DNA of 64,000 nt from Owenweeksia sp. (GTDB lineage Bacteria > Bacteroidota > Bacteroidia > Flavobacteriales > Schleiferiaceae), in the NCBI GenBank assembly GCA_028285465.1, contig JANQPD010000092.1, positions 1 through 64,000 of the forward strand, written 5' to 3'. This document shows, piece after piece, positions 1-41,541 of this stretch. Every line of letters begins with the position of its first letter. Position 1 is the stretch's first letter. A program made the position numbers and the translations under genes. The notes beneath the pieces were generated by a model. The model saw only the letters and a program-made list of their open reading frames with translations. It was not told the DNA's origin and did no database searches.

Positions 1-2353
1 AGTTTCCATTTACCCCGATAATGGTATTGGCAATGGGCTCGTCTCCAATGTTTACCTTGGGTGTAAGCGGGCGCTCGGAAAGACGTACCATAGTGGCGCC
101 CAGGTTCAGGTTCTCACTAAAGCGGTAATCGGCATTGATCCCTGTAAAGATCCGGGTTTGTACGTTAAAAAGGGCATTGTTTTCAAAATCTACTTTTATC
201 GGTGTTCCCGACTCCAACAAGCCTTCGTTGAGTATCTGAATGCTTCCCGCATTATAATCCACGCGGTAATCCACATCTTCTATCAATTTGGCTCCCCCTG
301 CGGTAACGGTTACCGAACCCCGCGGTATATTAAATGCGTTTAACTGTATACGGCTGCCGGAGGCAGACTTAAACTGCCCCCTTAACAGGAATTTATTGAG
401 GCGGGTTTCGTTTTGGGCTATGAAACGGGTACTGTCATACAACTCCTGGAATACATACTGATCGCGTACTTCTTCTGTATTCAACTTTCGGGAAAGGTTG
501 CTCCCAAAAGGTTCCAGTACCGGAAAGATTACCCGGCCCGTTTGTGCATTTATGGTAACCCCCTGTACAAAATCAAAGAAGCCATCGGGCTGTGCATCGT
601 TGTTTACGTTTAAGCGATCCAGTTCCATTACCCGTACGAGCAGTTGATCGGAGAGGTTTCCCTCCGGCAGGAAGGGAATAGGTACACCGGTTTCATCGTT
701 CTGGTAAAGCACATCCAGTTTAAAATCTTCCCGGTTTACCTGGTATGCTCCTAAGGAATAGATGTTTTTCATCATCAGGTCCCACATGGGTGTACGTACA
801 TCGAGTATGATGCTCTTAAGCATCTTGAGCACCAGGTTTTTGGGAGGGGTTACCCCATCATTGGAAAACTCACCTACCTGGTAGGTTTTACCGCCTGCGG
901 TAAATTGGAAGGCCACAGCCAGAACCTCATCCTGGTTAAGAGATGTACTCAGGGAAACATAACCGAGTTGGGGGTTGAAGCTATATTCCGAAGGGCGCAA
1001 CAAACGTGCATTGGCCAGTTCCACATATTCTATGGCTTCTTCAAATCCGGCACTGTTCAAGGCATTGTTTACCTGTCCTATATCCCTTACTCCGGGAAAA
1101 TTCTGCTCCAATGCATCAGGGGATAGTGCGTTGTTTTCATTATCCGGAAAACCCTGATTTTGAAAAAAACGGGTAAAAATAACCGGGCCGGGACGATTCG
1201 CAGCCGTACTGCGGTAAGCACCTTCCCCGTCTCCTTCACCAAGGTCCATAAAAGCCACGATGTTGCGGGTATTTTCCGTTTCCTGCCGTGTGTTGGTTAC
1301 CCATACTTCTACTTTGGTAATTTGTACCGGAGAAGTGATCAAAGGCACGTCTGCCACGAATCGTTCGTAGTTGTCCCTGAAATAGTGCGCTAAGAAAAAG
1401 TGCCGGTTGGCTTCATATTGATCGCCCCATATTTCAAAATCTGTGGTAGTGGCGCCTCCTTGTATATTTATGGAACTAGACTGGCTGCGCTGCTCCGAAA
1501 GCACGGTGGTAACTGTAAGTTTACCAAACTGAAACTGCCCCTTTACACCAAACAAGCTCTGTGCCCCGGTAATAAGGCTACTGTTTAAAGGCAGGCTAAC
1601 ATTGCCTATTTCAATCTTTTTTACAATGTCGTCCTCATCCCCCGTAAACTCGAGCTTCATCTGGTTCTCAAAGTTAAAGGTGGCTTCTGTATCGTAATTG
1701 GTGCTCAACTTCAACTTGGTTCCAATGTTGCCCGTAACATTCATCTGGATACGCTGATCGAAATCAAAGTTGAACGTGGTCCGGTTCCGCTCAGGGATTA
1801 TGGGGTTGTCGATGTTCTGTATCCTCCCGCCAAAGCGCAACTCTGCATAGCCCTGCGGCCTGATGTCTATGGTGTTGCTCCCGAATAGTCTTTCAAAAAG
1901 CTGGTTGTTGACCTGGATCTGCGGGATGAGAGAACTGCCCGGGTCACGTCCTTCTGCAGCTGCGGCCTCATCACTTTGTGTTTTGGTACGCCAATATTCT
2001 TCGCTTTGCTTCTGCTCTATGTAGGCGCTGTATTCTTCGGGCGTCATAAACATCGGGGGTCTGGCAATCAAACCTCCAATCTTTTGGGTAACGATATATT
2101 GATCAGTTACCGGGTCATACTCTACTTCTTCCGAATAATTGTCGGGATTGTCCAGGTAAAGCCCCCCGGTCTCCTGATCAAAAGGATATTGCAGCGAATC
2201 GCGTTCATTGGTATCGGCCGGACTTATGCGTAGCTGAGGGTCCAGCAAAGGGTTTTCCTCAAACAAGGGGGTGGTACTTGTAAAGCCCGAAAGGGTAAAC
2301 ACAGCGGCAACAAAGGCAATAAACCCTAAAGTACGTATCGACTCTTTCCCCAT
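1..2353 (-). CDS. sprA: Gliding motility / T9SS translocon protein SprA, N-terminal part (runs off window)
   Basis: This frame is open from an ATG at 2353 to the window edge, giving 784 codons of a protein that is usually well over 2000 residues. The start has a signal-peptide-like hydrophobic stretch (FIAFVAAVFTLSG). SprA-typical text follows, such as DIRPQGYAELRFGGR, RNRTTFNFDFDQRIQMN, FGVKGQFQFGKLTVTTV and SVTVTAGGAKLIEDVDYRVDY. SprA forms the very large outer-membrane channel of the type IX secretion system, which exports the CTD-tagged proteins encoded elsewhere in this window. The ATG directly abuts the ruvA stop codon (TAG then ATG, no gap), so the two genes are co-transcribed and probably translationally coupled. 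The C-terminal part lies outside the window. Confidence 0.95.
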   Translation of the reverse strand, partial: MGKESIRTLGFIAFVAAVFTLSGFTSTTPLFEENPLLDPQLRISPADTNERDSLQYPFDQETGGLYLDNPDNYSEEVEYDPVTDQYIVTQKIGGLIARPPMFMTPEEYSAYIEQKQSEEYWRTKTQSDEAAAAEGRDPGSSLIPQIQVNNQLFERLFGSNTIDIRPQGYAELRFGGRIQNIDNPIIPERNRTTFNFDFDQRIQMNVTGNIGTKLKLSTNYDTEATFNFENQMKLEFTGDEDDIVKKIEIGNVSLPLNSSLITGAQSLFGVKGQFQFGKLTVTTVLSEQRSQSSSINIQGGATTTDFEIWGDQYEANRHFFLAHYFRDNYERFVADVPLITSPVQITKVEVWVTNTRQETENTRNIVAFMDLGEGDGEGAYRSTAANRPGPVIFTRFFQNQGFPDNENNALSPDALEQNFPGVRDIGQVNNALNSAGFEEAIEYVELANARLLRPSEYSFNPQLGYVSLSTSLNQDEVLAVAFQFTAGGKTYQVGEFSNDGVTPPKNLVLKMLKSIILDVRTPMWDLMMKNIYSLGAYQVNREDFKLDVLYQNDETGVPIPFLPEGNLSDQLLVRVMELDRLNVNNDAQPDGFFDFVQGVTINAQTGRVIFPVLEPFGSNLSRKLNTEEVRDQYVFQELYDSTRFIAQNETRLNKFLLRGQFKSASGSRIQLNAFNIPRGSVTVTAGGAKLIEDVDYRVDYNAGSIQILNEGLLESGTPIKVDFENNALFNVQTRIFTGINADYRFSENLNLGATMVRLSERPLTPKVNIGDEPIANTIIGVNGN

Positions 2354-2932: not shown

Positions 2933-2984
2933 TGAGAAATAGGCCTGGTTACTTTCTATTTTTACTCAGCAGTGAAAAGAACGC

Positions 2985-2992: not shown

Positions 2993-3018
2993 GCCATTTC
3001 ATATATGGAGATAAAAAA

Positions 3019-3043: not shown

Positions 3044-3068
3044 GCTGTAATAATCGGAATAGCAGCGT

Positions 3069-3770: not shown

Positions 3771-3866
3771 GTGAACGTATTTAAAGCGGTAAATATAAGC
3801 CTTTGTGTTTTTAATGTAAAATTTTCTTTAATTTACAGCTTCATTCATTTAAATACCCTATCAAAC

Positions 3867-5909: not shown

Positions 5910-5942
5910 AATAGTTTCTTCCTCAATTGAAGGAAGCAATAT

Positions 5943-5978
5943 AAAACCCCCGACATGGTTTTCCATATCGGGGGTTTT
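5943..5978 (+). terminator. Intrinsic terminator after the 3867-5909 gene
   Basis: A 16-base arm pair (AAAACCCCCGACATGG with CCATATCGGGGGTTTT) has one mismatch and a TTTT loop. A T-rich tail follows on the plus strand. A-rich sequence on the other side means it could also act in reverse. Confidence 0.85.
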
Positions 5979-6123
5979 TATTTTTAACGGTCTCTTCCGA
6001 AGGCTTTTACCCGGCACATCCTTTATACATGCACCGGCATACCTTTATCCTGTAATTAAGGGGCTACTTACCTCAGATCTCCCAGTCTTAATCAAAGGAG
6101 GGATCTCCCGAGGTGCAAAAAAA

Positions 6124-6145
6124 AACACCGCCTGTAGGCGGTGTT
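6124..6145 (-). terminator. Intrinsic terminator after the second small CTD gene
   Basis: A perfect 9-bp stem (AACACCGCC / GGCGGTGTT) has a TGTA loop. A T run follows on the minus strand (plus-strand A run just before 6124). It lies 36 bases beyond the stop codon of the 6181-6897 gene. Confidence 0.85.
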
Positions 6146-6180
6146 GTAATCACTTTTCAGTAGTTGGCAAAACGGTCGGT

Positions 6181-6897
6181 CTATTGGACTAAAAGCTTTT
6201 TGGTGCTCAGGGTTTTTCCTGCCCGCTCAACTGCATAAAAGTATAAACCCCTCGGCCATTCAGAAATGGTCAAGGTCTGTTTTCTTCCCCCCGTACCCAG
6301 CGGCATGCTTTTCTTTAAACTACCCGTTACGTCAAATATTTTGAGGATATCCCCTCCTTTGCCAAGGGTACCGGCAGAGAAAGAAAGTACTTGCGAAGCA
6401 GGATTTGGATACACTTTTACGTATTCCAATTGAGATTCCTCTAAACTAAAGTTAGCGGATACCGCATAATAAATTGTATGCGCTATAGAATCCATTGGGT
6501 TGTTCTCGTTGAAAAACACATACGTAATAGGCCCGCTTTGCACAACTCCGTCCAGGTCTGGGTACACATGACCGCTAAAATCATTATACACACTATCCGG
6601 GATCATCACGGATGAAAAAGGGGTTTGTGAAGTGGAAGGGGGGAAGCAGATCCCCCAGCAGATGGCGTTGCTGTCTGTAAGTGCATTATAGCCTTTGCTA
6701 TCCATGCGCTTTACCATTACATCCACATTCACGCGGGAAACATTTTTCAATTTAATATGTCCGCTGATGTCGACAGTATTGCTGGCATTGCCATAAACGA
6801 TGGAATCTGCCTCTACAATTTCAAAGCTCTGCCCTTTGACGGGGCTCCATCCTAAACAGGCCGCTATAAAAGACAGAAAGAGTATTTTTTTGAACAT
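6181..6897 (-). CDS. Small secreted protein with T9SS type A sorting domain (paralogue of 3069-3770)
   Basis: The ATG at 6897 was chosen; an upstream TTG at 6915 adds six residues ahead of an already good signal peptide (MFKKILFLSFIAACLGWSPV). The 238-residue product matches its neighbour at 3069-3770 along its length: EADSIVYGNASN, KNVS, VKRMD, LTDSNAICWGICF, GHVYPDLDGV. The C-x3-C motif is Cys80/Cys84. The last 75 residues are a T9SS sorting domain (VKVYPNPASQVLSFSAG ... GLYFYAVERAG ... KKLLVQ). It is divergent from the larger CTD protein at 7104, repeating the 3069/3867 pairing. Function is unknown; a partner or chaperone-like role beside the thioredoxin-like protein is inference. Confidence 0.84.
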   Translation of the reverse strand: MFKKILFLSFIAACLGWSPVKGQSFEIVEADSIVYGNASNTVDISGHIKLKNVSRVNVDVMVKRMDSKGYNALTDSNAICWGICFPPSTSQTPFSSVMIPDSVYNDFSGHVYPDLDGVVQSGPITYVFFNENNPMDSIAHTIYYAVSANFSLEESQLEYVKVYPNPASQVLSFSAGTLGKGGDILKIFDVTGSLKKSMPLGTGGRKQTLTISEWPRGLYFYAVERAGKTLSTKKLLVQ

Positions 6898-6921
6898 AAG
6901 CTGTATTCTTTGCAAGATTCA

Positions 6922-6929
6922 CAAAGATA
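6922..6929 (-). promoter_or_regulatory. Candidate -7 box for the 6181-6897 gene
   Basis: The minus strand reads TATCTTTG, an exact TAnnTTTG match, 25 bases upstream of the ATG. Confidence 0.45.
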
Positions 6930-7030
6930 CAACTATCAGGCCAAAACCTGCTTTCTTCAACTGCTACGGAAAGCCCTTACACCTGTAGCATGCTTCTGAT
7001 TCTGAGACCGGAGAGAAACCCAAAACACCC

Positions 7031-7038
7031 TAATTTTG
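7031..7038 (+). promoter_or_regulatory. Candidate -7 box for the 7104-8969 gene
   Basis: TAATTTTG is an exact TAnnTTTG match, 65 bases upstream of the ATG at 7104. No clear -33 TTTG was seen. Confidence 0.4.
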
Positions 7039-7103
7039 TTCAAAAATGATCGAATTAACCAAAAGTTAATACTAAATTAGGCGCCCATTAAAATCCCTTT
7101 ACC

Positions 7104-8969
7104 ATGAAAAAACTTTTATTCTTTGGCTTAGCCTTGAGTTTTTTAGGGGCACAGGCTCAAATTTTTTCAGAAGATTTCAGCAATGGCATCCCCTCGTCAT
7201 TCACCCTAATCGATAATGACGGAAATACACCCGCTGCGCAAGTAAGCTTTATAACCGATGCCTGGGTTGCCAGGACTTCGACAGACGGAAACGGATATGC
7301 GGCCAGCACTTCGTGGTACGCCCCCCCTGGGACAGCAGACGATTGGTTGATCACCCCGGCAATTACCATTACCAATAGCGATACGTATTTGCTTTGGAAG
7401 GCAGGTGCGCAGGATCAGAGCTTTCCAGACGGATACGAAGTATTGATCTCAACTACCGGTACAGCAATTGCTGACTTCTCGGTAGCATACAGCAACCCGG
7501 GTGAAGGCGCACCATTTGTTTCTCGTGCGCTTGACCTTTCTTCTTATGTGGGAAGCACTATTCATGTCGCATTCAGAAATAACTCTAACGATATGTTTTT
7601 ACTTCTTGTTGACGATATCGTAGTTAATGAATTTCCTGATGTGGATGTAGCTGGTTTAGACGTTATTGTAGACAAGTTCTACGCTACTAATACAGCCGTT
7701 GACATAGAAGCTACCTTTACCAACAATGGTAAAGGTGTTAGCAGTGCTACGTTAAACTATAGCGTAAACGGCGGAACTCCTGTAAGTACAGCTCTCTCGG
7801 GGTTCACCTTCAATCCAACAGCAACCGAAACTTTTGTTAGTGGAACAACATGGACACCAACTGCTGCCGGGCAATACAAAATCAAAGCCTGGCTGAGCAA
7901 TATAAATGGTGGAACAGCTGATGCAAACAATACAAATGATACGGCATATGCTGATGTAACGGTATTATCCAACCCACCTCAGCGTAATGTTCTGGCTGAG
8001 GAATTTTCAAGTTCTACATGCCCTCCCTGTAAAACATGGAACGATAATGTATACAACGCTGCACTCGCCGGTTATAATAATTTCGGAGATAAGCTGGTAG
8101 TGAAGTACCAGGTGCCTATTCCTGTAGCCGGAGACCCCAGCCGAAACCCGGATTCAGATGCAAGAAGAGCTTATTATGGCGTAAACTCAGCCCCTACCAT
8201 GCTGGTTAATGGCCGGGAGCCTGAAGGTTATGCAACCATTACCACCTGGGCCGATGCTACCAATGCTTATACAGAGGCAGAAGCAGATGGCCTTGCTGCT
8301 CCGGCTTTAGCCGAAATTGTTGCTTCTGCAGATGTTGACGGCCAAGGAAATAATACCACTATTACCGTAAACGCTACCATTAATCCTATAATAGATATGA
8401 ATAATGGAAATTATCGTGTACAAATGGTTGTATCACAAAAAGCATACACTTTTAATGGTGCTACAAATGGGGACTTTAATTATAAGCATGTAATGCGTAA
8501 AATGCTCCCAGACCCAAATGGAACCGCACTTAATACGGCAGCCGGCGGAAGTCAGGCAGTTACCGGTTCTTTTCAATTTCCTGTTGGGGGCGTTGCCGAG
8601 GGCAATTATAACCTGTGGAATAACAATATTGAAGTTATTGTCTTTGTGGAAGATATAGATGATATGAGTATTTCCAATGCTTCACAAGCTCATCTGAATA
8701 TTATTGGCCTGGGTGAAAATCAGACTTTGGCCGGCGTTAGTATTTTCCCTAATCCCGCGAATAATAGAATGGGTATTGTTATTGAGAACAACAACAATGA
8801 GGTATCTGTACAACTGACCAACACCATTGGTCAAACGGTTCGCAAAAGTACTTTTAGCCCTAATGAAAATATCATCCTTGATACCCAGAACCTTGAAATG
8901 GGCATGTATGTCATTACTGTTACGGCAGGAAATAGGTCTTATACACAACGTGTAGCGATCAGCCACTAA
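7104..8969 (+). CDS. Choice-of-anchor J / Omp28-thioredoxin-like protein with T9SS sorting domain
   Basis: The 621-residue product has a signal peptide (MKKLLFFGLALSFLGAQAQ). A cleaved-adhesin / choice-of-anchor J type domain spans about residues 20-175 (FSEDFSNGIPSSFTLIDNDG, ADDWLITPAI, VDDIVVNEF). A CARDB-like segment follows, then an Omp28/thioredoxin-like domain starting EEFSSSTCPPCKTWN with Cys306 and Cys309. A T9SS sorting domain ends the protein (VSIFPNPANNRMGIVIEN...TQRVAISH). From about residue 290 onward it closely matches the protein at 3867-5909, while the N-terminal domain differs. The codons look more A/T-rich than in that paralogue. A hairpin terminator follows. It is probably surface-exposed with thiol-disulfide activity; the substrate is unknown. 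Confidence 0.88.
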   Translation: MKKLLFFGLALSFLGAQAQIFSEDFSNGIPSSFTLIDNDGNTPAAQVSFITDAWVARTSTDGNGYAASTSWYAPPGTADDWLITPAITITNSDTYLLWKAGAQDQSFPDGYEVLISTTGTAIADFSVAYSNPGEGAPFVSRALDLSSYVGSTIHVAFRNNSNDMFLLLVDDIVVNEFPDVDVAGLDVIVDKFYATNTAVDIEATFTNNGKGVSSATLNYSVNGGTPVSTALSGFTFNPTATETFVSGTTWTPTAAGQYKIKAWLSNINGGTADANNTNDTAYADVTVLSNPPQRNVLAEEFSSSTCPPCKTWNDNVYNAALAGYNNFGDKLVVKYQVPIPVAGDPSRNPDSDARRAYYGVNSAPTMLVNGREPEGYATITTWADATNAYTEAEADGLAAPALAEIVASADVDGQGNNTTITVNATINPIIDMNNGNYRVQMVVSQKAYTFNGATNGDFNYKHVMRKMLPDPNGTALNTAAGGSQAVTGSFQFPVGGVAEGNYNLWNNNIEVIVFVEDIDDMSISNASQAHLNIIGLGENQTLAGVSIFPNPANNRMGIVIENNNNEVSVQLTNTIGQTVRKSTFSPNENIILDTQNLEMGMYVITVTAGNRSYTQRVAISH

Positions 8970-8994
8970 AACTGGCTTTATTTTTGAGAAAACG

Positions 8995-9021
8995 GAGTAG
9001 CCACGCTTGTCGTGGCTACTC
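8995..9021 (+). terminator. Hairpin terminator after the 7104-8969 gene
   Basis: A perfect 11-bp stem (GAGTAGCCACG / CGTGGCTACTC) has a 5-base loop. Only a short T-rich tail (TCTTTG) follows. It may be partial, allowing read-through into the thioredoxin gene 34 bases later. Confidence 0.7.
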
Positions 9022-9054
9022 TCTTTGCTAAAAAACTACAACAAAAACAGGAAT

Positions 9055-9567
9055 ATGAAAAAATGGATCGCCCTTTTCGCCTTATTGGCCGTAAGCCTGG
9101 GCAACACAAACAGCAACGGTAAAATGCCTGATATAAAGATCAAGGACCTGAATGGTTCCCTGATCAGTGCATCCAGCCTTACCAATAATGGAAAGCCGAT
9201 GGTGGTAAGTTTTTGGGCTACCTGGTGCAAACCTTGCGTAAGAGAATTAAACGCCATTAACGAACAGATCGTAGACTGGGAAGATGAAACCGGAGTAAAA
9301 CTCGTGGCCATCAGCATTGACGACAGCCGCCAAAGTGCACGTGTGCGCCCGTTTGTAGCCAGCCAGGGCTGGGAGTACGAAGTATACCTGGATGAAAACA
9401 GCGAACTGCGCAGGGCGTTGAATGTAAACAACATTCCCCACACTTTTTTATTGAATGGAGCAGGGGAAATTGTTTGGCAGCATAACGGTTACTTTCCCGG
9501 AGATGAAGACCACCTGTATGAACTTGTACAGAAATTGGCAAAGGGAGAAACCATCGAACACAAATAG
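9055..9567 (+). CDS. TlpA/ResA-like thioredoxin-family protein
   Basis: The ATG at 9055 starts a signal peptide (MKKWIALFALLAVSLGN); an upstream in-frame start at 9007 lies inside the preceding hairpin and was rejected. The 170-residue product is a periplasmic thioredoxin fold with VVSFWATWCKPCVREL, placing the redox pair at Cys58/Cys61, and the cis-proline region NNIPHTFLL. TlpA/ResA proteins reduce periplasmic disulfides. The next genes are an outer-membrane barrel and two Omp28 lipoproteins with CNNC and CNTC motifs. The order suggests it supplies reducing power to them, which is inference. Confidence 0.88.
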   Translation: MKKWIALFALLAVSLGNTNSNGKMPDIKIKDLNGSLISASSLTNNGKPMVVSFWATWCKPCVRELNAINEQIVDWEDETGVKLVAISIDDSRQSARVRPFVASQGWEYEVYLDENSELRRALNVNNIPHTFLLNGAGEIVWQHNGYFPGDEDHLYELVQKLAKGETIEHK

Positions 9568-9622
9568 ACCTCTTAGCAAACGCCTTTTTTGATCACCAAA
9601 CAAACCACTCCACCTTTAGCGT

Positions 9623-11356
9623 ATGAAAAAGCTATTGACAGTACTGTTGGTCTTCACCGGCAGTACTTTTCTTTTTGCCCAAAACTTTGGCCGCATCAGC
9701 GGTAATTTTCAAACCGATTTTCAATACTACCTCAGAGATACCCTTATCGACCCGCTTGGAGAGGCTTATCCCGATGAGCGTTTACTAGGTACGGGCTTCT
9801 TAAACCTTACTTATCAAAGAGACAACTTTATTGCAGGCATTCGCTATGAAAACTACCAGAACAACCGGGTAGGTTTGCCCCAGGATTATAAAGGAGAAGG
9901 CATAACCTATCGATATGCCCGCTTTATTAAAGACAAGTGGGATATCACCGCCGGAAATTTCTATGAGCAATTCGGATCGGGGATTATTCTGCGGGCATAC
10001 GAAGAGCGTGGATTAGGGCTCGATAACAACCTGGATGGTGTCCGCACCATTTACACCCCAATGGAAGGACTTACGTTTAAAGGGGTAATTGGTCGACAGC
10101 GTAACTTCTTCGAAAAAAGCAACACCATTGTACGGGGCTTTGACACTGAATGGAGCCTGCGCAATACCTTGCAATGGGAAAGCACCACGAACGTGATTTT
10201 GGGTGCCGGGCTGGTAAGTAAATTCCAGGAGGTTACCAGTCCTTTTTACACCTACCCTCAAAACGTAGCTGCCGGGGCGTTCCGGGGAACCGTGATTACC
10301 CCTACCCTTAACTTTTCAGCGGAATACGCGTATAAAGCCAACGACCCAAGCACCGATAACGAAATTATCTACAAACCCGGCCATGCTTTGTACATAAGTT
10401 CCTCTTATACCCGGGGCAGCCTGGGCCTTACCGGAGAGATAAAGTATTACGACAACTTTTCTTTTCGCTCTGAGCCGAACACCCAGCCACAACAATTGCT
10501 GATCGGCTACTTGCCTTCTGCTACAACACTCCACACATATGCGTTACCGGCCCTTTACTCTTACAATACTTCACTTACAGGTGAGCAAGGTTTCCAACTC
10601 GGTGCTTCCTATTATTTTAAACGGGGAACACCCTTAGGGGGGAAATACGGCTTAAAAGTAGAAGCCAGCCTGGCACAAAGCTATAGCCTGAATAAGGATT
10701 ATGAATACCGTGTTACCGCTATTGACTCTGTAACCAATTTACCAACCGACAGTACAGTAAGTGGTACAGATGGGTACACCACTAACTTTGGGTTAGGGCC
10801 GATCAAGTATTTCCAGGATTTTCACATCCAGGTGAAAAAGAAACTCAGCAAAAAAGTAAGCATTACCGGTACTTATTACAATTTTTATTTCAATAGCGAC
10901 GCCATCCGTAAAGGCACCGCAGGTGTTGCTGACTACCAGCTGTACCCCAATGCCGATAATCCCAATGGATTAGAGCCCAATGCCTTTCCGGTCAATGCAA
11001 TTGTATTGGACATCCTTTGGAAGCTTAAGCCCGGGCATTCTCTACGAACAGAGATACAAGGTTTATGGACGGATGGGCAAGACGACCGCTTTGGGGGAGA
11101 CTGGGCCTTGCTCTTGCTCGAGTACAGCATTGCGCCCCATTGGTTTCTTGCGGTTCAGGACGCATATAACTATGGCAACGGGCTAGAAGAGCTTCAAATT
11201 CATTACCTTAGCGTGAATGCCGGTTACACCCTGGGTACTACACGTTTGCAGGTAGGTTACGGCCGTCAGCAAGAAGGAGTGTTTTGTGTAGGCGGCATCT
11301 GCCGGGTAGTGCCGGCAAGCAACGGCTTTACTTTAAGCCTTACTACTAATTTTTAA
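9623..11356 (+). CDS. DUF6029-type outer-membrane beta-barrel protein
   Basis: The 577-residue product has a signal peptide (MKKLLTVLLVFTGSTFLFAQ). It is rich in alternating aromatic and polar residues typical of outer-membrane beta strands (YRYARFIKDKWDITAGNFYEQFGSG) and ends in a strand finishing with Phe (GFTLSLTTNF). It resembles the Bacteroidota DUF6029 family, of unknown function. It contains only two cysteines, Cys555 and Cys560 in FCVGGICR, located between the last two predicted strands. The gene sits between a TlpA-like thioredoxin (56 bases upstream) and an Omp28 lipoprotein (4 bases downstream), so the three are probably one operon. Confidence 0.8.
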   Translation: MKKLLTVLLVFTGSTFLFAQNFGRISGNFQTDFQYYLRDTLIDPLGEAYPDERLLGTGFLNLTYQRDNFIAGIRYENYQNNRVGLPQDYKGEGITYRYARFIKDKWDITAGNFYEQFGSGIILRAYEERGLGLDNNLDGVRTIYTPMEGLTFKGVIGRQRNFFEKSNTIVRGFDTEWSLRNTLQWESTTNVILGAGLVSKFQEVTSPFYTYPQNVAAGAFRGTVITPTLNFSAEYAYKANDPSTDNEIIYKPGHALYISSSYTRGSLGLTGEIKYYDNFSFRSEPNTQPQQLLIGYLPSATTLHTYALPALYSYNTSLTGEQGFQLGASYYFKRGTPLGGKYGLKVEASLAQSYSLNKDYEYRVTAIDSVTNLPTDSTVSGTDGYTTNFGLGPIKYFQDFHIQVKKKLSKKVSITGTYYNFYFNSDAIRKGTAGVADYQLYPNADNPNGLEPNAFPVNAIVLDILWKLKPGHSLRTEIQGLWTDGQDDRFGGDWALLLLEYSIAPHWFLAVQDAYNYGNGLEELQIHYLSVNAGYTLGTTRLQVGYGRQQEGVFCVGGICRVVPASNGFTLSLTTNF

Positions 11357-33075: not shown

Positions 33076-36000
33076 CTATTGCTTGATGATCTTGGTAGTA
33101 GCTACCTGGCCATCGTTCGTTTTCAGGTTCAGGAAATATACGCCTTTGGGCAGTGGGTGCACATGCAGTGTACTTCCCAAGCCATCAAAAACAAGGCTTC
33201 CGCTTTCTACCTTTTTACCGGATACGTCCATAAGCTGGTATTCGGCCTCTCCGATAAATCCATTGTTTAAAACCAAAGACAATTTATCGCTAACCGGTTG
33301 CGGGTATACCCTAAGGTTTGTTTCTTCGGCAAAATCGCTGATCAGGTAGCCTGTGCTTACGGGGCCGGGATCATTGGCCCGCTTATACGTGGCGCCCAAA
33401 TGCTGTATCCGGCAGGCCTGTATCGCCAGGGCATAAGCCTCAGGCTCTATTGTACCGTCATAAAAGTCTTTTTCAGTCTCACAAATACACGTCCAATAGC
33501 CTCCTCTCTGTTCCTGTATCTCGCCTACCCAAAATGCACCGGCCAGCACATCCAAAGCTTCCGGGTAATAGCCTCCGTTTCTGAGGGTTAGCACCATATC
33601 CAGGTGCAGCTTAAAATTCCAGTAATCGTAATCTGAAGCCTGCGGGTTCAGGTTGGCCAGCCTGCTGCTTATGATGTTCAGGCTGGTTTGCATAGCGGCC
33701 GGTTTTTCTAAACTGTATTCCCCTTCGGTATGAGGCAGGTGGCCAAACAGGTAGCTGTTTTCGGTGGCACTCAGCATCCACTCGTATGTATGCCTCAGCA
33801 AGGCGTCAGTGCCCTGGTCCGGGCTGGTGATCTCATCGGTAAGCGCAATTTGGAAATGCCCCAGGGCAGTCAGGTCATCTCCTTCCCCGGAACCGTAGCT
33901 CAGTTCCTGTAGCCCCAGGTATACTTCGTTAAGTAAGCTGTTGCCGCTGCCTACCAAAAGGCCTCCGTTATTGGGTAAAGCCAGTGCATTGAGCACATCA
34001 AAACCAGGGTGCTGCCCGCTTCCGCTGCTGCCGCTGTTGCAGTTGCGCTGCACGGAAGTGAGGTTTTGCGGCAGGTACAAACGGATGGGCCAGGCTTGCG
34101 ACTGCGGACCCATGGTTTGCCTTACGGTAAGCGCCACCGGCATTTCATATACGCAGCATTGCCCGTTGGGCGAAGCCACCTGGCGCAGGTCAAACCTATT
34201 GCCCGTGGCATCCATTTCTTCCAGCCCGGTAGTGGCGTTAAACACGTAATCGGAATGGGGCAGGCTGGCTGCAAAATTACCTTCGTATTCAAAAACACCT
34301 TGTATATGCAATTTACTGCTCGTAGCCCCGCTTAGCAAAAACTGGTTGTTGCCGTTTTGAAGGTACAGTCCGCCATCGCCTCCCCCGATGGCATTGAGCT
34401 CAATGCCTATGTCGTTGCCGTAAAAGTCATTGTAGGCATTTTGTTGCAAAAAGCCTTTGCCGTAGTTTACCAACAGCCCGGTATTGTTGGAGGCAAAAGT
34501 GTTGCAATTCAGGTTGGCCCCGGCCCTGTCTACGATTAAGCCGATCCCGCTCCCCATACTTCCGGCACTTTGCCACACAGGAAAACTGTTGAGAAAGGTA
34601 TTTTCCCTTACTTCAAAGGTGGTATTGTTGGAACCGTACAGGGAAGCCCCGTTGCCGTTATCGTCAAAAACATTGGCGTTAAGGCTGGATGCGCCCTGTA
34701 CCCCCTCAGCATACAGCCCGTCTGTATTTTTCTTAAACGTATTGTTTTGCACGATAAAACGGCCTCCCTCTATGCGCAAGCCCTGTTTGTTATACTCAAA
34801 CAGGTTATCGTCTACAAACAACTGGCGGGGCGTTCCGTTCCAGTGGGCCAGTATGCCGTATTCCCCGTTACTGAACGTGCTGTTCTTAACCAGGTTAAGC
34901 CCGCTGTGGTACCAGAGCCGCAGGCCACCATGCCGGTCGTCAGGGGCCGTGCTGCGGCCCCTTACCATGGCATTGTTTACGGTAGTAGCGCTATAGCTGA
35001 ACAGCAGTGCCCCGGGATGCAAAAAGGCGGTAGCCGAGGTCAGGCTGAAAGTGGCCGGTTTATTGCCCGACTCGTCAATAAAGTAAGTGGGTTTCAGGCA
35101 TTCCAGCACTACATCCTGCTTATCTGTTCCCTGCAGCACCACGCTTGTATTTGCCCCAAAGCTGTAGAAATCCGTAAAGTCCAGCCCGTTGCCCACCCAG
35201 GGAATGTCCTGGTCAAACACGAGTTTGCCGTTGCCGCTAAAGGTGAGGGTGGCGTTATCGCCAAGTGTGAGCTTGCCTCTTACCACAAGGGCTGCATCCT
35301 TATCCAGCAGTTCAAGCGAGGCCCCTTCTTCTAAAATAAACTCTCCGCCTTCTTCGATCGTAAGCTTGCCCTGGTTATGTACGATTACTTTGCCCCCTGC
35401 CTTTACCCGCAGTATGCTGTTTAGCTGCACCACGGCATGCCCGGTTTTTCCCTGGCTGCTGCCCAGTTCCAGTACGCCCCCGTCTTCTATTACCACTTCG
35501 GTGAGCTGGGGCAGATCGAAACTACAGGAATTGGTAATGTGCAGGGTAAACACATCCGTACCGCTCATGGGGTTTGCCGGCACATCCGTAAACCCAATCT
35601 TATCGTGGCAGTTCACGCATATTTTTCCGCTTGCTGCCGCATCCCCGCTTACCGTAAGGTCCTGGTCAATTTTATAGGTGGTTCTGCGGACAGGATCGAG
35701 CTGGCGGTTCTCTCCAAAGTTAAAGGTGCGCTTGTGCAAAGTGCCTCCCGCCAGGGTGTTGATGCCGTTGTCATCGGTAAAGAGGTAGGTGGCCATTACA
35801 TCGGCATTGCTGGGGGTAAAGGTTATGTGGTTCTCGTTGTTGTCCTGGGCCGGGGCTGCGGCAAGGTAATCCTGCGGCTGGTAAAAGTGTACCTCGTCAA
35901 AATTGGTTTTGGCCTGGTTTACCAATTGTGCCTCGCCCTGGGTATTGTACCAGGGGTTTAGCCGCTCGTCTACTATGTTGAGGGCCGAGACCGTAGGTAT

Positions 36001-37989
36001 ATAGCCAAAGCTGGCCCGGTTTATGTCAATGCCCGGTATATCATTTAGTTCCTGGAACTGGGCGCCCCCGAACTCGTTCAGATCGTACCGGCCTCCGGGA
36101 GCAACATCATAAGGTTGTGCCCTGTTTATCTCTACCTCCCTTTTTGAAAGATTCACGGGCAGTACGTACAATACATAAATACGGATGCGCCCGTAGTATA
36201 TTTTGGAGTAGTTCGTTCTGAAATCCGGCAGGGCGTAAATATCAAAATCCACATCTGCGCTTGCACCCATTAACACTACGGCCGCAAAACCGGCCATAAA
36301 GCTCCAGAAATCATTGGTATTGGTAAACTGGCTAAGGGCGGTAAAGCTGTTTACATCGATCTCTACCATTTTGCTCAGGGGTGCAAAGCCCTGTCCCACG
36401 CCATTGCCGTTGCCGCTGGCTATACCTATGTTCTTAAGCGTTTGCTGCGGCATGCCCAGGCCGGCCAGGTAGTCCAGGAACTGCGCCCGGGTACCATCGT
36501 TAAAGATGTTGTATATAAGCATTTGCCGGGCTGCCGGGCCGCGCAATACGTCCAGCGCTTCGCGCACCTGCTCTACTTCGGCCACAATGCCGTTGGTGAG
36601 CCAGTCCGGGTAATCTTCTTCCAGGGTGGTGGCTATATTGTCTACGTGTTCCAGGAAAAGCTGGAAGGCATAGGGCACGTTGGCGCCCAGGTGGGGGCTG
36701 TCGAAACTCACATAATAGCTGCACTCGTGGGCTTTGCCGGCCAGCTCCATTTCGCGCAGCGCAATGCGGGCCACTACCCCGCCCATGCTCTCACCCCATA
36801 CCACGTTGGGCTCGGTGCTGCCGTTGGCGGCTTTGGTTTGGTTTACCCAGTCTATGGCGGCTTCCAGCACCAGGGCATTTTCGAGCAGGTCGCCCCCGCC
36901 CTCGTCAAAATTGATGTACACCAGGTCGTAACCGCCCTGCTGCAGGTTGTTCCAAATATCGGTAAAGCCATCATTGGCTGGAAACCCTATTCGATAGTCA
37001 TTTAAGGCTTGCCATAAATCTGCAAAATCCAGATCCCCGAATGCATCCGGGTTAAAGCCCTCTACGTAAATAAAAGGCCTGCGCAGGCTTTGGTTGCCGC
37101 AGCCGTATTCAATCTGCAGGGTGGCGCCCAGGTTTTGCCCCTGTCCGCTGCTGAGGGGCACTTCCAGGTCGGGGAGCAGGTTATAGCCCACATCAAAGGC
37201 CTCCGTTTTGCCCGCCTGCGGGGCGGCCCCGGTATTTTCCAGCAAGAGCTTGCTATGGCTTACAAACACGCTTTGATCGGTATAGGTAATTTTATAGCTG
37301 AGGGTATAGCTGCCGTAATCGGGCCAGCTTACGGTAAAGGCCTGGTCGGGCGTAACGGCTTGCCAGCCCTGCCCGTTGCCAAAGTCGATCTCCAGCGCGG
37401 CCGGGCTTAGCCCGGTATTGCTGAAGAAAAAGGCGGGCTTGGCGATAAAGCTTTGGCTCAGGCTGTTTTGGATGCGCGAAACGGCCGGGCTTGCGGCAAA
37501 GGCAGTATGCTGCACCCAGGGGCTTTGGCTGCGGCCGGGCACATCGCGAAAGTAGGCCCCGTCAAACGTAACGAGCTGCGCCAGCAATTGGGGATCGCTT
37601 AGCGAAGCCTCGTAATGCAGGTGCAGGCCCCGGAAGGGAATGGTGCCGGCAGCTACCAGGTTTTGCGCCTCCTCCACCCAGGCGTCCGTAAGCACCGTGG
37701 TGCCGCTAAGCTGGGCGCGGTGCAGGGCGCCATAGAGGGCGTTCCACTGGTAATGGTCGCGCAGGGCCGGGCTTTCGCTGCTGCCATCATAGGCTTTTAC
37801 ATCTACCAGGGGCACGGCTTTATCCAGCAAAATGCCGGTTTGGAGGCCGCTCAGATCCAGCTGGCTGAGCAGCGAATCGAGGATGTAGCCGGGCGGTTTG
37901 CCCAGGCTGTCGGTAACCACAAATTGGGGTTGGGCAGTAAGGCCCAGGGCAAAGGCCAGCCCCAGGGCAGTGTTAATCAGGTTTTTCAT
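33076..37989 (-). CDS. Giant secreted esterase-like / beta-helix protein with T9SS sorting domain
   Basis: The 1637-residue product begins with a signal peptide (MKNLINTALGLAFALGLTAQ). An alpha/beta-hydrolase-like region spans about residues 290-560, with RRPFIYVEGFNPDAFGDLDF and the nucleophile elbow VVWGESMGGVVARIAL (Ser401 in G-E-S-M-G), like PGAP1/lipase-type serine hydrolases. A CVNCH motif is at Cys791-His795. Repetitive beta-solenoid follows (about 815-930, ILRVKAGGKVIVHNQGKLTI), then right-handed beta-helix repeats (about 1010-1240, LRIEGGRFIVQNNTFKKNTD). A C-terminal region with a four-Cys cluster (CICETEKD...) and a T9SS sorting domain (LRVYPQPVSDKLSLVLNN) end the protein. Its first 530 codons are much more GC-rich than neighbours. 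Four small lipoproteins lie upstream on the same strand. Confidence 0.82.
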   Translation of the reverse strand: MKNLINTALGLAFALGLTAQPQFVVTDSLGKPPGYILDSLLSQLDLSGLQTGILLDKAVPLVDVKAYDGSSESPALRDHYQWNALYGALHRAQLSGTTVLTDAWVEEAQNLVAAGTIPFRGLHLHYEASLSDPQLLAQLVTFDGAYFRDVPGRSQSPWVQHTAFAASPAVSRIQNSLSQSFIAKPAFFFSNTGLSPAALEIDFGNGQGWQAVTPDQAFTVSWPDYGSYTLSYKITYTDQSVFVSHSKLLLENTGAAPQAGKTEAFDVGYNLLPDLEVPLSSGQGQNLGATLQIEYGCGNQSLRRPFIYVEGFNPDAFGDLDFADLWQALNDYRIGFPANDGFTDIWNNLQQGGYDLVYINFDEGGGDLLENALVLEAAIDWVNQTKAANGSTEPNVVWGESMGGVVARIALREMELAGKAHECSYYVSFDSPHLGANVPYAFQLFLEHVDNIATTLEEDYPDWLTNGIVAEVEQVREALDVLRGPAARQMLIYNIFNDGTRAQFLDYLAGLGMPQQTLKNIGIASGNGNGVGQGFAPLSKMVEIDVNSFTALSQFTNTNDFWSFMAGFAAVVLMGASADVDFDIYALPDFRTNYSKIYYGRIRIYVLYVLPVNLSKREVEINRAQPYDVAPGGRYDLNEFGGAQFQELNDIPGIDINRASFGYIPTVSALNIVDERLNPWYNTQGEAQLVNQAKTNFDEVHFYQPQDYLAAAPAQDNNENHITFTPSNADVMATYLFTDDNGINTLAGGTLHKRTFNFGENRQLDPVRRTTYKIDQDLTVSGDAAASGKICVNCHDKIGFTDVPANPMSGTDVFTLHITNSCSFDLPQLTEVVIEDGGVLELGSSQGKTGHAVVQLNSILRVKAGGKVIVHNQGKLTIEEGGEFILEEGASLELLDKDAALVVRGKLTLGDNATLTFSGNGKLVFDQDIPWVGNGLDFTDFYSFGANTSVVLQGTDKQDVVLECLKPTYFIDESGNKPATFSLTSATAFLHPGALLFSYSATTVNNAMVRGRSTAPDDRHGGLRLWYHSGLNLVKNSTFSNGEYGILAHWNGTPRQLFVDDNLFEYNKQGLRIEGGRFIVQNNTFKKNTDGLYAEGVQGASSLNANVFDDNGNGASLYGSNNTTFEVRENTFLNSFPVWQSAGSMGSGIGLIVDRAGANLNCNTFASNNTGLLVNYGKGFLQQNAYNDFYGNDIGIELNAIGGGDGGLYLQNGNNQFLLSGATSSKLHIQGVFEYEGNFAASLPHSDYVFNATTGLEEMDATGNRFDLRQVASPNGQCCVYEMPVALTVRQTMGPQSQAWPIRLYLPQNLTSVQRNCNSGSSGSGQHPGFDVLNALALPNNGGLLVGSGNSLLNEVYLGLQELSYGSGEGDDLTALGHFQIALTDEITSPDQGTDALLRHTYEWMLSATENSYLFGHLPHTEGEYSLEKPAAMQTSLNIISSRLANLNPQASDYDYWNFKLHLDMVLTLRNGGYYPEALDVLAGAFWVGEIQEQRGGYWTCICETEKDFYDGTIEPEAYALAIQACRIQHLGATYKRANDPGPVSTGYLISDFAEETNLRVYPQPVSDKLSLVLNNGFIGEAEYQLMDVSGKKVESGSLVFDGLGSTLHVHPLPKGVYFLNLKTNDGQVATTKIIKQ

Positions 37990-38021: not shown

Positions 38022-38537
38022 CTAGAATCTCATACAAAAACGGCCGTTGGTGATGTAAGCGGTGTCTTTTAATTGATCGTTGTATTGGGTAAATTCAAAC
38101 CTGCCTTCTACGTAGCCATTGGTAAAGTCCGCGCTGTAGTTGTCCTCTACAAAACCGGTGATACTAACTTGTCCACTAAGGGTAGAGTCATAATCAACAC
38201 TACCTGTTTCACTTCTATAATAAATTATAGAAGTGAAGGTACTATCAGAGTAAAAGCCTACGCTTTTCATTTCGGAAATATTAAAGCTTACTCCATTCAC
38301 CTCACCTGCATCCGGGTTACAATTCCTTCCTGATATAACCAAATATCCCGTATCAGGATTATACCATTTACTAAACCCAGCACATCTTAGATTACCTTCA
38401 GTCTTAAACGGCTCCCCATTTACCAGGCAAGTAAAGCCAATAAAATCATTACAGGGAATATCCGGTTCGGGCTCTTTGCGGCAGGCCAGGGTGCTCAACA
38501 GAAAAAGGGATAGAAGCAGGAGGGGTTTTCGTTTCAT
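38022..38537 (-). CDS. Tandem lipoprotein paralogue 4 (nearest the esterase gene)
   Basis: The ATG at 38537 gives 171 residues with lipobox STLAC followed by RKEPEPDIPC. A longer in-frame start at 38591 lies ahead of the signal peptide and was rejected. The N-terminal 60 residues (DFIGFTCLVNGEPFKTEGNL) and C-terminal 45 residues (FVEDNYSADFTNGYVEGRF, DTAYITNGRFCMRF) are shared with the three upstream paralogues. The centre (about residues 75-120) is unique. Five cysteines besides the lipid-bearing one are conserved, suggesting a disulfide-stabilised beta domain. It ends 32 bases before the esterase gene start. Function is unknown. Confidence 0.78.
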   Translation of the reverse strand: MKRKPLLLLSLFLLSTLACRKEPEPDIPCNDFIGFTCLVNGEPFKTEGNLRCAGFSKWYNPDTGYLVISGRNCNPDAGEVNGVSFNISEMKSVGFYSDSTFTSIIYYRSETGSVDYDSTLSGQVSITGFVEDNYSADFTNGYVEGRFEFTQYNDQLKDTAYITNGRFCMRF

Positions 38538-38600
38538 GGTCTTTTTTCTAAAAGAGAAGCGTATAAAAGTTAAGCAGGCATTAAAGTACAAAAAATAAAA

Positions 38601-39116
38601 CTAAAGGCGCATGCAAAAGAGGCCGTTGGTGATGTAAGCCGTGTCTTTTAATTGCTCGTTATATTGGGTAAATTCAAACCTGCCTTCTACATAGCCGTTG
38701 GTAAAGTCCGCACTGTAGTTGTCTTCTGTGAAACCAGTAATGACAACCGATCCCGATAAGGTAGAATCATAATCCGTTAAGTTTGAATCCCCCATATAGG
38801 TATAATTTGATTTCATTAGTGGAGGAGTGTAACTTCCTGTCCCATTCAATTTAAATATGGTGAAGTTTACTAGAAAAGGCTCTTCAAAATTTACATTACA
38901 ATCTGTGCCAGCTATCACTAATTGCATTGTGGCAGTGTTATACCATCTCGTTGTGCCTGAGCATCTTAAATTCCCATCAGTATTGAATCTTTCTCCATTT
39001 ATCAGGCAAGTAAAGCCTATAAAATCATCGCAGGGAATATCCGGTTCGGGCTCTTTGCGGCAGGCCAGGATGCTCAACAGAAAAAGGGATAGAAGCAGGA
39101 GGGGTTTTCGTTTCAT
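38601..39116 (-). CDS. Tandem lipoprotein paralogue 3
   Basis: The 171-residue product has leader MKRKPLLLLSLFLLSILAC and then RKEPEPDIPCDDFIGFTC. It is nearly the same as its neighbours at both ends (DNYSADFTNGYVEGRFEFTQ, DTAYITNGLFCMRL). The central 45 residues differ (VNFTIFKLNGTGSYTPPLMK, SNYTYMGDSNLTDYDSTLSG) and resemble the copy at 39730 (SNYTYRSE). The spacer to the next copy repeats sequence found in the other spacers, so the array grew by tandem duplication. It is predicted to be outer-membrane anchored. No known domain was recognised. Confidence 0.78.
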   Translation of the reverse strand: MKRKPLLLLSLFLLSILACRKEPEPDIPCDDFIGFTCLINGERFNTDGNLRCSGTTRWYNTATMQLVIAGTDCNVNFEEPFLVNFTIFKLNGTGSYTPPLMKSNYTYMGDSNLTDYDSTLSGSVVITGFTEDNYSADFTNGYVEGRFEFTQYNEQLKDTAYITNGLFCMRL

Positions 39117-39175
39117 GGTCTTTTTTTCTAGAAGCGTATAAAAGCTAAGCAGGCATTAAAGTACAAAAAATAGGG

Positions 39176-39691
39176 TTAAAAGCGCATACAAAAGCGGCCA
39201 TCGGTTACACGCATGGTATCACTAAAAGCCGTATCGGTAACTGTAAAGGCAAACCTGCCTTCTACATACCCGTTGGTAAAATCAGCACTATAATTATCTT
39301 CTGTAAATCCGGTAACATTTACCTGCCCAGAGAGAATTGAATCATAATCATAAAAATTACTTTCCAAAACTGATGTAATATTAGCTCTAAAACTACTTAC
39401 CTCATACTCTCTAGCTCCACAAAATGAATGAATATAAAAGTTAATTAGTCTTATCTCATTAAGGCTGGCGTTACAATTCCTTCCAGACACCAAGAGGTTT
39501 CCTTCATCTGGATCATACCACTTCGTAAACCCAGCGCAAGTAAGGTTTCCCTGGGTTTTAAAGGGTTCCCCGTTTATCAGGCAAGTAAAGCCGATAAAAT
39601 CATCGCAGGGGATATCCGGTTCCGGTTCTTTACGGCAGGCTAAGATGCTTAACAGAAAAGGGAGTAAAAGCAGGAGGGGTTTTCGTTTCAT
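39176..39691 (-). CDS. Tandem lipoprotein paralogue 2
   Basis: The ATG at 39691 gives 171 residues with the leader MKRKPLLLLLPFLLSILAC. The front (DFIGFTCLINGEPFKTQGNL) is shared with the array. The centre is distinctive and AT-rich (INFYIHSFCGAREYEVSSF), with an extra Cys. The tail is altered (FAFTVTDTAFSDTMRVTDG) before ending in the common RFCMRF. This copy therefore differs in two blocks, which suggests mosaic exchange between copies. Function is unknown. Confidence 0.78.
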   Translation of the reverse strand: MKRKPLLLLLPFLLSILACRKEPEPDIPCDDFIGFTCLINGEPFKTQGNLTCAGFTKWYDPDEGNLLVSGRNCNASLNEIRLINFYIHSFCGAREYEVSSFRANITSVLESNFYDYDSILSGQVNVTGFTEDNYSADFTNGYVEGRFAFTVTDTAFSDTMRVTDGRFCMRF

Positions 39692-39729
39692 GGTCTTTTT
39701 TCTAAAGGAGAAGCGTATAAAAAATAGAA

Positions 39730-40257
39730 CTAAAACCGCATACAAAAGCGGCCGTTGGTGATGTAAGCCGTATCCTTCAATTGATCGTTGTATTGGATAA
39801 ACTCGAACGTACCTTCTACGTAGCCGTTGGTGAAGTCTGCGCTGTAGTTGTCTTCTACAAAACCGGTTACATATACCTTTGTAGAAATTATTGAATCATA
39901 CTTTATAAGGTCTATCTCTGACCTATAGGTATAATTTGATTTCACCCGAGGTAGCGAATATTCGCCAGGACCATCAAAATCAAAAAGGGTGAAGTTCACC
40001 CAGGCAGGTTCATTAGCCCTAGCATTGCAGTTTGCACCATCGATTACTAATTGCTTTATATTGGGATTGTACCACCTCGTAAAACCCGGACACCCCAGGT
40101 TTCCCTGGGTTTTAAAGGGCTCCCCGTTTACTTTACAGCTAAAGCCAATAAAATCATCACAGGGAATATCCGGTTCGGGTTCTTTACAACAGGCGCCCAG
40201 GAAAAAAAGGACTGCCCCATACACGAAAAGGTTCCAAAATAAGCGGCCTTTTTGCAT
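39730..40257 (-). CDS. Tandem lipoprotein paralogue 1 (first of the array)
   Basis: The ATG at 40257 gives 175 residues. The signal peptide (MQKGRLFWNLFVYGAVLFFL, lipobox GACC) differs from the MKRKPLL leaders of the other three. The mature part still begins KEPEPDIPCDDFIGFSCKVN and ends FVEDNYSADFTNGYVEGTF ... FCMRF. It is the first gene of the run on the minus strand and may represent the founder copy. No promoter box was recognised upstream. Confidence 0.78.
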   Translation of the reverse strand: MQKGRLFWNLFVYGAVLFFLGACCKEPEPDIPCDDFIGFSCKVNGEPFKTQGNLGCPGFTRWYNPNIKQLVIDGANCNARANEPAWVNFTLFDFDGPGEYSLPRVKSNYTYRSEIDLIKYDSIISTKVYVTGFVEDNYSADFTNGYVEGTFEFIQYNDQLKDTAYITNGRFCMRF

Positions 40258-40851: not shown

Positions 40852-41541
40852 TTAGAACTGCCGGGCCACAAAGCCGCCCCCCATCATAGCAGCCACCGCC
40901 AGGTTGAGTTCCTGGGCAATCCGCTTCCCGATGTTCTGGCCGATCAGGTCCATTTTAGCGATCAGCTCGATCCGCTCCCGGTGCTGGTCCCGCTCTTCGT
41001 GGTTTAAGACGAAATGGAGCATGCCGCTGTTGTACAGCAGGCTGATGATCACCATATCGTGCAGGTCCGGGATTTCTTCGCTAAAGATCAGCGCACGCAA
41101 GCGGGATTTCACATCCTTTACTTCTTCCCGGTCACGGATGGGGTATTTGGGGGCACTGAATACCCACAATATCTTCCGATTCTCTATTTTAAGCAAGCCT
41201 TTGCGAATCAGCACATTGAGCAGGGCATCCACAAAGCTTTCATGCTTTTCATACAAGCGGTTCATCCAAAAGTTGATGTTCCTGCGGCTGGCATCCAGTT
41301 GCATGTCGATAAGGGCGATGTCCAAAATTTCCGAACCGGTGGGCTCGGTACTTTCGATGATCACCTTTTCGGTATCCGTATCTATCCGGTTTTGAAGGGC
41401 CAGCTCCATCAAAATGGAACCGGCAAGCGCCAGCTTAAAGGAACTGCTGTGCATGCCGGAAGTATTTCCTTCCGCATGGTCGGTACTGAGGAGAAAAAGC
41501 TCCTCGGGAATGCTTAAGTCTTTGATAGAAAGGTTTGCCAT
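40852..41541 (-). CDS. GPP34 (GOLPH3/Vps74-like) family protein
   Basis: The 229-residue product matches the GPP34 fold. It opens with the family signature LSIPEELFLLSTD, followed by a mainly helical body (LALAGSILMELALQNRIDTD, LLNVLIRKGLLKIENRKILW, MVIISLLYNSGMLHFVL). In eukaryotes these proteins bind phosphatidylinositol-4-phosphate on Golgi membranes. The bacterial members have no established role. It appears to be a single-gene unit; neighbours give no functional clue. The short charged start supports the ATG at 41541. Confidence 0.87.
   Translation of the reverse strand: MANLSIKDLSIPEELFLLSTDHAEGNTSGMHSSSFKLALAGSILMELALQNRIDTDTEKVIIESTEPTGSEILDIALIDMQLDASRRNINFWMNRLYEKHESFVDALLNVLIRKGLLKIENRKILWVFSAPKYPIRDREEVKDVKSRLRALIFSEEIPDLHDMVIISLLYNSGMLHFVLNHEERDQHRERIELIAKMDLIGQNIGKRIAQELNLAVAAMMGGGFVARQF

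What the first reader, a model, noticed from the sequence alone, without database searches (positions are those of the whole stretch)
38022..40257. Four tandem lipoproteins with conserved ends and swapped, AT-rich centres
The paralogues share their first roughly 60 and last roughly 45 residues almost unchanged, while the middle 40-50 residues differ sharply. In the variable centre GC falls (17 of 60 bases at 39421-39480) compared with about 50% in the conserved ends. One copy (39176-39691) also has a different C-terminal block. The pattern resembles cassettes that diversify by recombination at conserved flanks, as in surface antigens, receptors or immunity proteins.
Basis: partly seen in the sequence, partly recalled or inferred. 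Interest (0 to 1): 0.6.

Follow-up and report, generated by a model that had tools for sequence, protein, structure and literature searches.

The report
Lipoprotein arrays beside a secreted esterase
Four near-copy lipoproteins sit just upstream of a giant secreted lipase-like enzyme, and the same pairing, reshuffled by recombination, recurs across the Bacteroidota; it looks like an antibacterial enzyme with a collection of antidote genes, arranged in mirror image to the known systems.

Summary
Four DUF6252/Riean_0653-family lipoproteins (38022-40257, minus strand) share ends and differ in the centre. The first copy has a foreign signal peptide, 39176-39691 a different C-terminal block, and the ends are 41-47% GC, not about 50%. 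A scan with the lipoprotein alone found an esterase homologue within 500 bp downstream in 42 of 78 Bacteroidota loci; 39 had tandem lipoproteins. In 42 of 44 arrays the N-block, and in 44 the C-block, is more conserved than the centre, beyond between-locus pairs matched for centre identity. In 22 of 39 longer spacers lie same-strand esterase pieces, mostly 5' stubs. Two esterases in one genome are 10-40% identical over 875 residues, then about 98% identical (DNA) to the end. Seven of nine genomes with orphan arrays lack an intact esterase. Best reading (about 0.5): a T9SS effector with an upstream immunity-lipoprotein array built by sequential displacement and end conversion, a mirror image of CDI/Rhs/T6SS arrays. 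Main rival: an activator lipoprotein. No function was tested.

The parts
39730..40257 (-). g1, lipoprotein 175 aa, first gene of the array; own unrelated signal peptide, body like the others
   Evidence: NF052634 52 bits, under the cut-off of 57
39176..39691 (-). g2, lipoprotein 171 aa, variant C-terminal block
   Evidence: NF052634 58 bits, over the cut-off
38601..39116 (-). g3, lipoprotein 171 aa; N-terminal ~45 codons and upstream spacer almost identical to g4
   Evidence: NF052634 45 bits, under the cut-off
38022..38537 (-). g4, lipoprotein 171 aa, next to the esterase; predicted cognate partner
   Evidence: NF052634 61 bits, over the cut-off; EST-proximal copies track EST best across loci
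38538..38600 (-). spacer g3-g4, nearly identical to spacer g2-g3: homogenised non-coding DNA
39117..39175 (-). spacer g2-g3
33076..37989 (-). EST: 1637-aa secreted protein: signal peptide, alpha/beta-hydrolase core with GESMGG (Ser401), NosD/beta-helix region (about 1005-1195), T9SS type A sorting domain (1561-1637); starts 32 bp after g4
2..2155 (-). 5' half of sprA, core T9SS translocon gene (rest on contig C79): the host has the secretion system the esterase tail needs

Best explanation
The four lipoproteins (LIP) are the partner side of a LIP-esterase module. LIPs are lipid-anchored in the outer envelope. The gene just downstream (EST) makes an alpha/beta-hydrolase that is carried across the outer membrane by the T9SS. 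EST most likely acts on lipids or esters of neighbouring cells, and each LIP most likely neutralises the EST variant it evolved with, the EST-proximal copy (g4) being the cognate one. When a new LIP-EST 5' module recombines in, the old EST is displaced or cut to a 5' stub and the old LIP is kept as an orphan antidote, giving the array. Recombination between copies then homogenises the shared spacer, signal peptide and N block while the partner-specific centres stay apart. The order (immunity, then enzyme at the N-terminus, then delivery tail at the C-terminus) mirrors CDI/Rhs/T6SS, as expected because the T9SS signal is C-terminal. Shown by sequence: linkage, operon-like order, stubs, N-terminal swap on a shared C-terminal tail, orphan arrays, end homogenisation. 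Inferred: secretion, toxicity, immunity, cognate pairing.
For: EST homologue within 500 bp downstream on the same strand in 42 of 78 loci found by a LIP-only pattern (a random gene would lie next to one of a few ESTs among some 3000 genes well under 1% of the time, own estimate). 39 of 78 loci have two or more LIPs. Esterase remnants on the same strand in 22 of 39 LIP-LIP gaps of 150 bp or more, none on the other strand; [LIP][truncated EST] repeats in L141, L148, L119, L149, L190, L171. In G342 two ESTs are 10-40% aa identical to residue 875 then 97-100% identical in DNA to the C-terminus, each behind its own LIP array (only these two copies of that tail in the genome). Adjacent LIP tracks EST better than distal LIP (r 0.60 vs 0.35; random copy choice reaches it in 3.5%). 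ESTs with LIP-A neighbours group together on the EST tree (2 label changes, shuffled mean 12.3), apart from ESTs whose upstream slot holds a second lipoprotein family. Seven of nine genomes with EST-less LIP arrays have no EST or only a 75-residue stub. Catalytic Ser conserved in 31 of 32. Host has SprA.
Against: No toxicity, immunity, secretion or binding has been tested here. 36 of 78 LIP loci lack an adjacent EST, and six of 16 additional EST loci have no recognised lipoprotein upstream, including one in this genome (L064). In Riemerella, Tn4351 insertions in Riean_0653, the namesake of the family, reduce haemolysis and the ORF in trans restores it (PMC7881567), which points to an activating rather than an inhibiting role (though Tli of the Tle lipase does both, PMC10294624). 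Centre dN/dS is about 0.29, no sign of an arms race in pairwise averages. The adjacent/distal contrast is only p=0.035, and the distance correlation includes shared ancestry.
Confidence: 0.5

Rival explanations
1. LIP is a dedicated activator, chaperone or surface anchor of the esterase (like a lipase-specific foldase or a surface docking lipoprotein); arrays are duplicates, one per EST variant.
For: Riean_0653 mutants lose haemolysis and are complemented by the ORF alone (PMC7881567); in a genome placed in the same genus (G251) three Riean_0653-family LIPs sit 18-24 bp apart and 4 bp before an intact 1007-aa EST. LIP type follows EST subclade.
Against: Arrays persist where no EST is detectable: five of nine genomes have none and two only a stub. 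LIP:EST ratios up to 7:1 and retention of LIPs beside truncated ESTs are hard to explain for a helper. Some ESTs have no LIP. Not excluded: a dual role as in Tli/Tle.
Confidence: 0.28
2. Surface lipoproteins diversified for antigenic or phage/predator escape, with the esterase next door by chance or only co-transferred.
For: Lipid-anchored, acidic residues after the Cys resembling the Bacteroidetes export signal in part of the family, mosaic centres.
Against: 54% adjacency to one particular enzyme family across many families of Bacteroidota, esterase stubs inside the arrays, LIP-EST co-variation; centre under purifying selection.
Confidence: 0.12
3. Ordinary tandem duplication; ends are conserved by purifying selection for signal peptide and core strands, the centre is a relaxed region.
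For: C-block synonymous identity does not exceed the centre's (21 of 44 arrays, p=0.25); the C block and the N-block motif are conserved between genera as well.
Against: Spacers and synonymous codons in the N block are conserved within arrays; within-array signal peptides, N and C blocks exceed between-locus pairs with the same centre identity; pooled synonymous differences are lower in the ends (pS 0.28 and 0.35 vs 0.49); mosaics between species; the centre is predicted as well-ordered beta strands, not a loop.
Confidence: 0.1

Closest known systems
T6SS effector-immunity arrays of Vibrio cholerae (sequential displacement, PMC5361080)
   Same: Incoming effector-immunity modules displace the old effector and leave its immunity gene, giving mosaic arrays of orphan immunity genes next to one intact effector.
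   Different: T6SS cargo; immunity genes lie 3' of the effector and old ones are pushed downstream. Here LIPs lie 5' of EST, stubs are mostly EST 5' ends, and the delivery signal is a C-terminal T9SS tail.
Tle/Tli lipase effectors with lipoprotein immunity (T6SS)
   Same: A lipase-type enzyme paired with a small lipoprotein; Tli both neutralises and activates Tle (PMC10294624), which would reconcile immunity with the Riean_0653 phenotype.
   Different: No sequence relation to LIP or EST appeared in the scans run; T9SS rather than T6SS; Tli of E. cloacae is an ankyrin-repeat protein.
TANFOR polymorphic toxins of Bacteroidetes (PMC7073777)
   Same: Polymorphic toxins of Bacteroidetes suspected to leave through the T9SS, with neighbouring immunity genes.
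   Different: TANFOR is N-terminal and the toxin C-terminal, immunity downstream, mostly nucleases; here a T9SS tail is on the protein itself and the variable enzyme is N-terminal.
Riean_0653 family (NF052634) / DUF6252 (PF19765) lipoproteins
   Same: The window copies belong to this group of uncharacterised lipoproteins (two over the NCBIfam cut-off, two just under); all 16 tested flavobacterial LIPs match NF052634.
   Different: Known only from a transposon screen for haemolysis; its link to a T9SS esterase and its array structure were found in no paper of the library searched.

Membership tests
Riean_0653 family NF052634 | Score over the NCBIfam cut-off (57 bits) over the full length | tested here: met
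   g4 61.1 and g2 58.0 over the cut-off; g1 52.1 and g3 45.1 under it, all full-length
DUF6252 (PF19765) | Score over Pfam gathering cut-off 27.2 | tested here: not met
   Window copies 15-23 bits; flavobacterial LIPs 26-42 bits
T9SS substrate (EST) | C-terminal sorting domain TIGR04183/PF18962, signal peptide, host T9SS | tested here: met
   TIGR04183 43.8 bits at 1561-1637; SprA in the genome; signal peptide by reading of the N-terminus only
Alpha/beta-hydrolase esterase (EST core) | Fold and nucleophile elbow GxSxG | tested here: met
   Foldseek prob 1.00 to many esterases; Ser in 31 of 32, GxSxGG in 32 of 33; Pfam PGAP1/DUF676 over cut-off for some homologues
Polymorphic toxin-immunity system | Variable toxin module recombined onto a conserved delivery module | tested here: met
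   N-terminal 875 residues differ on a near-identical C-terminal ~290 residues in G342; one clear case, a second weaker (L163)
Polymorphic toxin-immunity system | Immunity gene adjacent to the toxin, orphan immunity genes kept | tested here: inconclusive
   Adjacency and orphan arrays shown, immunity not shown
Polymorphic toxin-immunity system | Toxicity to non-immune cells, neutralised by cognate immunity protein | not testable with these tools
   needs experiments
TANFOR polymorphic toxins | N-terminal TANFOR domain | tested here: not met
   No TANFOR-type match in the Pfam or NCBIfam scans of EST
Tle/Tli | Sequence relation to Tle1-5 or Tli and a T6SS delivery feature | not tested
   No dedicated model was run; the general family scans showed none
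Known anti-phage defence proteins | Match in PADLOC-DB | tested here: not met
   No match for LIP or EST

The most novel reading that the evidence does not exclude
Probability: 0.42. Interest if true: 0.85.

Novelty: new variant of a known kind. Interest (0 to 1): 0.68.

Why it matters
Whether the T9SS takes part in killing between bacteria is posed as an open question in the literature found (PMC7073777). This module would make it testable with a defined enzyme and antidote in many cultured, genetically tractable Bacteroidota, would give a function to the DUF6252/Riean_0653 lipoproteins, would offer a candidate explanation for a gene already known to affect haemolysis, and would show how polymorphic toxin systems look when the delivery signal is at the C-terminus.

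Tried and rejected
First genome-contig scan with the four window copies: nothing. The genus holds only the window's genome, so no strain comparison of this array. Pfam alone gives only sub-threshold DUF6252. PADLOC: nothing. Foldseek of the LIP model: no significant match; VIA-align's best is mycobacterial lipoprotein LpqH (Z 8.9, rmsd 2.5, 102 residues, 7% identity), not enough for a relation. PDB sequence searches with LIP and EST profiles: nothing. Positive selection in the centre: not supported (dN/dS 0.29). Export signal: window copies read CRKEPE/CCKEPE, close to but not the minimal K-(D/E)2; the family scan (51 of 151 by a loose pattern, cysteine choice uncertain) is inconclusive, so surface exposure is left open. 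Second lipoprotein family (LIP-B): mosaic too, but its variable part is the C-terminal third or the N-terminal half, not the centre, so 'conserved ends, variable centre' is a LIP-A feature, not a law of the slot. A clean GC-based import of the centres: contrast too small. Papers on T9SS-dependent killing by a CTD-bearing lipase with tandem lipoproteins: none found.

Full report
Observation. Four intact ORFs lie at the stated coordinates on the minus strand: g1 39730-40257, g2 39176-39691, g3 38601-39116, g4 38022-38537. All carry a lipobox and align over their full length. The ends are more alike than the centre in all six pairs (DNA 0.67-0.88 vs 0.47-0.59), and the spacers g2-g3 and g3-g4 are almost identical. 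The 17 of 60 GC count is exact.

What is next to it. 32 bp downstream of g4, on the same strand, starts a 1637-aa protein (33076-37989) with a signal peptide, an alpha/beta-hydrolase core with the nucleophile motif GESMGG, a NosD/beta-helix region and a T9SS type A sorting domain. The predicted core (pLDDT 74) matches esterases with Foldseek probability 1.00. The host has SprA, half of it in this window. I call the enzyme EST and the lipoproteins LIP.

The family. LIPs belong to NF052634 (Riean_0653 family): g2 and g4 pass its cut-off, g1 and g3 fall under it; Pfam DUF6252 is only sub-threshold. Sixteen flavobacterial relatives all match NF052634. The predicted LIP fold is an all-beta domain (pLDDT 85) in which the conserved blocks hold the first and last strands and the variable centre the middle strands.

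Linkage. A genome scan that used only a LIP motif gave 78 loci across the Bacteroidota. In 42 an EST homologue starts within 500 bp downstream on the same strand; 39 have two or more LIPs. Some of the others are cut by a contig end. The same arrangement was found in the window's own family (L008, L009, L068, L074) and in a complete genome that I place in the genus Riemerella (L215: three LIPs, then EST with a 4-bp gap). That placement rests on its genus-mate G331 carrying the same 99022-base contig and array as R. columbina; I could not tell whether it is R. anatipestifer itself. A second lipoprotein family fills the same slot in front of other ESTs, also in tandem, including three copies elsewhere in this genome (L065). 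On an EST tree the LIP-A-linked ESTs group together, so lipoprotein family follows enzyme subclade.

Recombination. In 44 arrays, the N block exceeds the centre in 42 and the C block in 44 (amino acids); synonymous identity of the N block exceeds the centre in 39, but that of the C block in only 21. Against between-locus pairs with equal centre identity, within-array pairs have more similar signal peptides, N blocks and C blocks (p 3e-11 to 2e-2). So the N side is homogenised within arrays, and the C side is a mix of constraint and recombination. Two Bizionia species have five and three copies; one copy is 96-99% conserved, others are not one-to-one. In Riemerella one pair shares ends but not centre (0.90/0.50/0.93) and another the centre and C block but less of the N block (0.79/0.91/0.94). 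Centre dN/dS is 0.29: no positive selection.

Traces of displacement. Of 39 LIP-LIP gaps of at least 150 bp, 22 contain EST pieces on the same strand, mostly the first 50-60 residues, and none on the opposite strand. Several loci read [LIP][truncated EST][LIP][truncated EST]...; in L141 two stubs end just after the catalytic motif. In G342 two ESTs that are 10-40% identical over 875 residues become 97-100% identical in DNA from residue 876 to the end. This is a swap of the enzyme part, together with its own LIP array, on a shared delivery tail. Nine genomes with LIP arrays lacking a neighbouring EST were searched: five have no EST, two Bizionia only the 75-residue stub, two an EST elsewhere.

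Mechanism. The layout is that of an effector-immunity system in which modules displace one another and old immunity genes are kept, as described for V. cholerae T6SS (PMC5361080), but in mirror image: LIP upstream, variable enzyme N-terminal, delivery signal C-terminal, as a T9SS substrate requires. Orphan arrays and high LIP:EST ratios favour immunity over a helper role. Adjacent LIPs track EST better than distal ones (0.60 vs 0.35, 3.5% of random choices). Against this stands the only phenotype known for the family: Riean_0653 insertions reduce haemolysis and the ORF restores it (PMC7881567), which fits an activator, or a dual role as shown for Tli (PMC10294624). I put immunity (possibly with activation) at about 0.5, a pure helper role at 0.28.

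Limits. Gene calls in the loci are mechanical ORFs. The adjacency rate depends on an EST profile built partly from the same loci, which affects sensitivity, not strand or position. Tests on arrays pool related organisms. No strain of the window's own genus is available. Draft genomes may hide an EST in a gap. Secretion, toxicity, binding and immunity are inferred.

Novelty. Families and mechanism type are known; the combination (T9SS-tailed esterase, upstream lipoprotein arrays, N-terminal swapping) was not found in the papers searched. I class it as a new variant of a known kind.

Noticed in passing
L065 (G000:C53:1-4300), 155-2438: Elsewhere in the window's genome three tandem lipoproteins of an unrelated family (no Pfam match here; weakly CarboxypepD_reg-like in some relatives) precede an EST paralogue; copies differ mainly in the last third.
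   Followed up: partly
L064 (G000:C95), 5592-7500: Another EST of this genome has no lipoprotein upstream, lies near a possible IS110-type transposase ORF (192-1205, named by eye), and pairs with Flavobacterium dankookense with full support and short branches, suggesting recent horizontal transfer.
   Followed up: partly
L163, 843-11170: Two complete LIP-EST modules in tandem in one Bacteroidia MAG; the ESTs converge only in the last ~90 residues (T9SS tail).
   Followed up: partly
L079 (G002:C104), 423-4189: Second-family lipoproteins alternate with duplicated ~240-aa secreted proteins before an EST; a third kind of component may belong to some modules.
   Followed up: no
window 40852-41541: GPP34 (Golgi phosphoprotein 3 family) protein just upstream of the array, on the same strand; no sign that it belongs to the module.
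   Followed up: no
L216 (G342), 4671-9980: Seven LIPs of two subtypes that share the signal peptide but differ in the motif after the Cys, one broken copy, before an EST: the clearest large array.
   Followed up: partly
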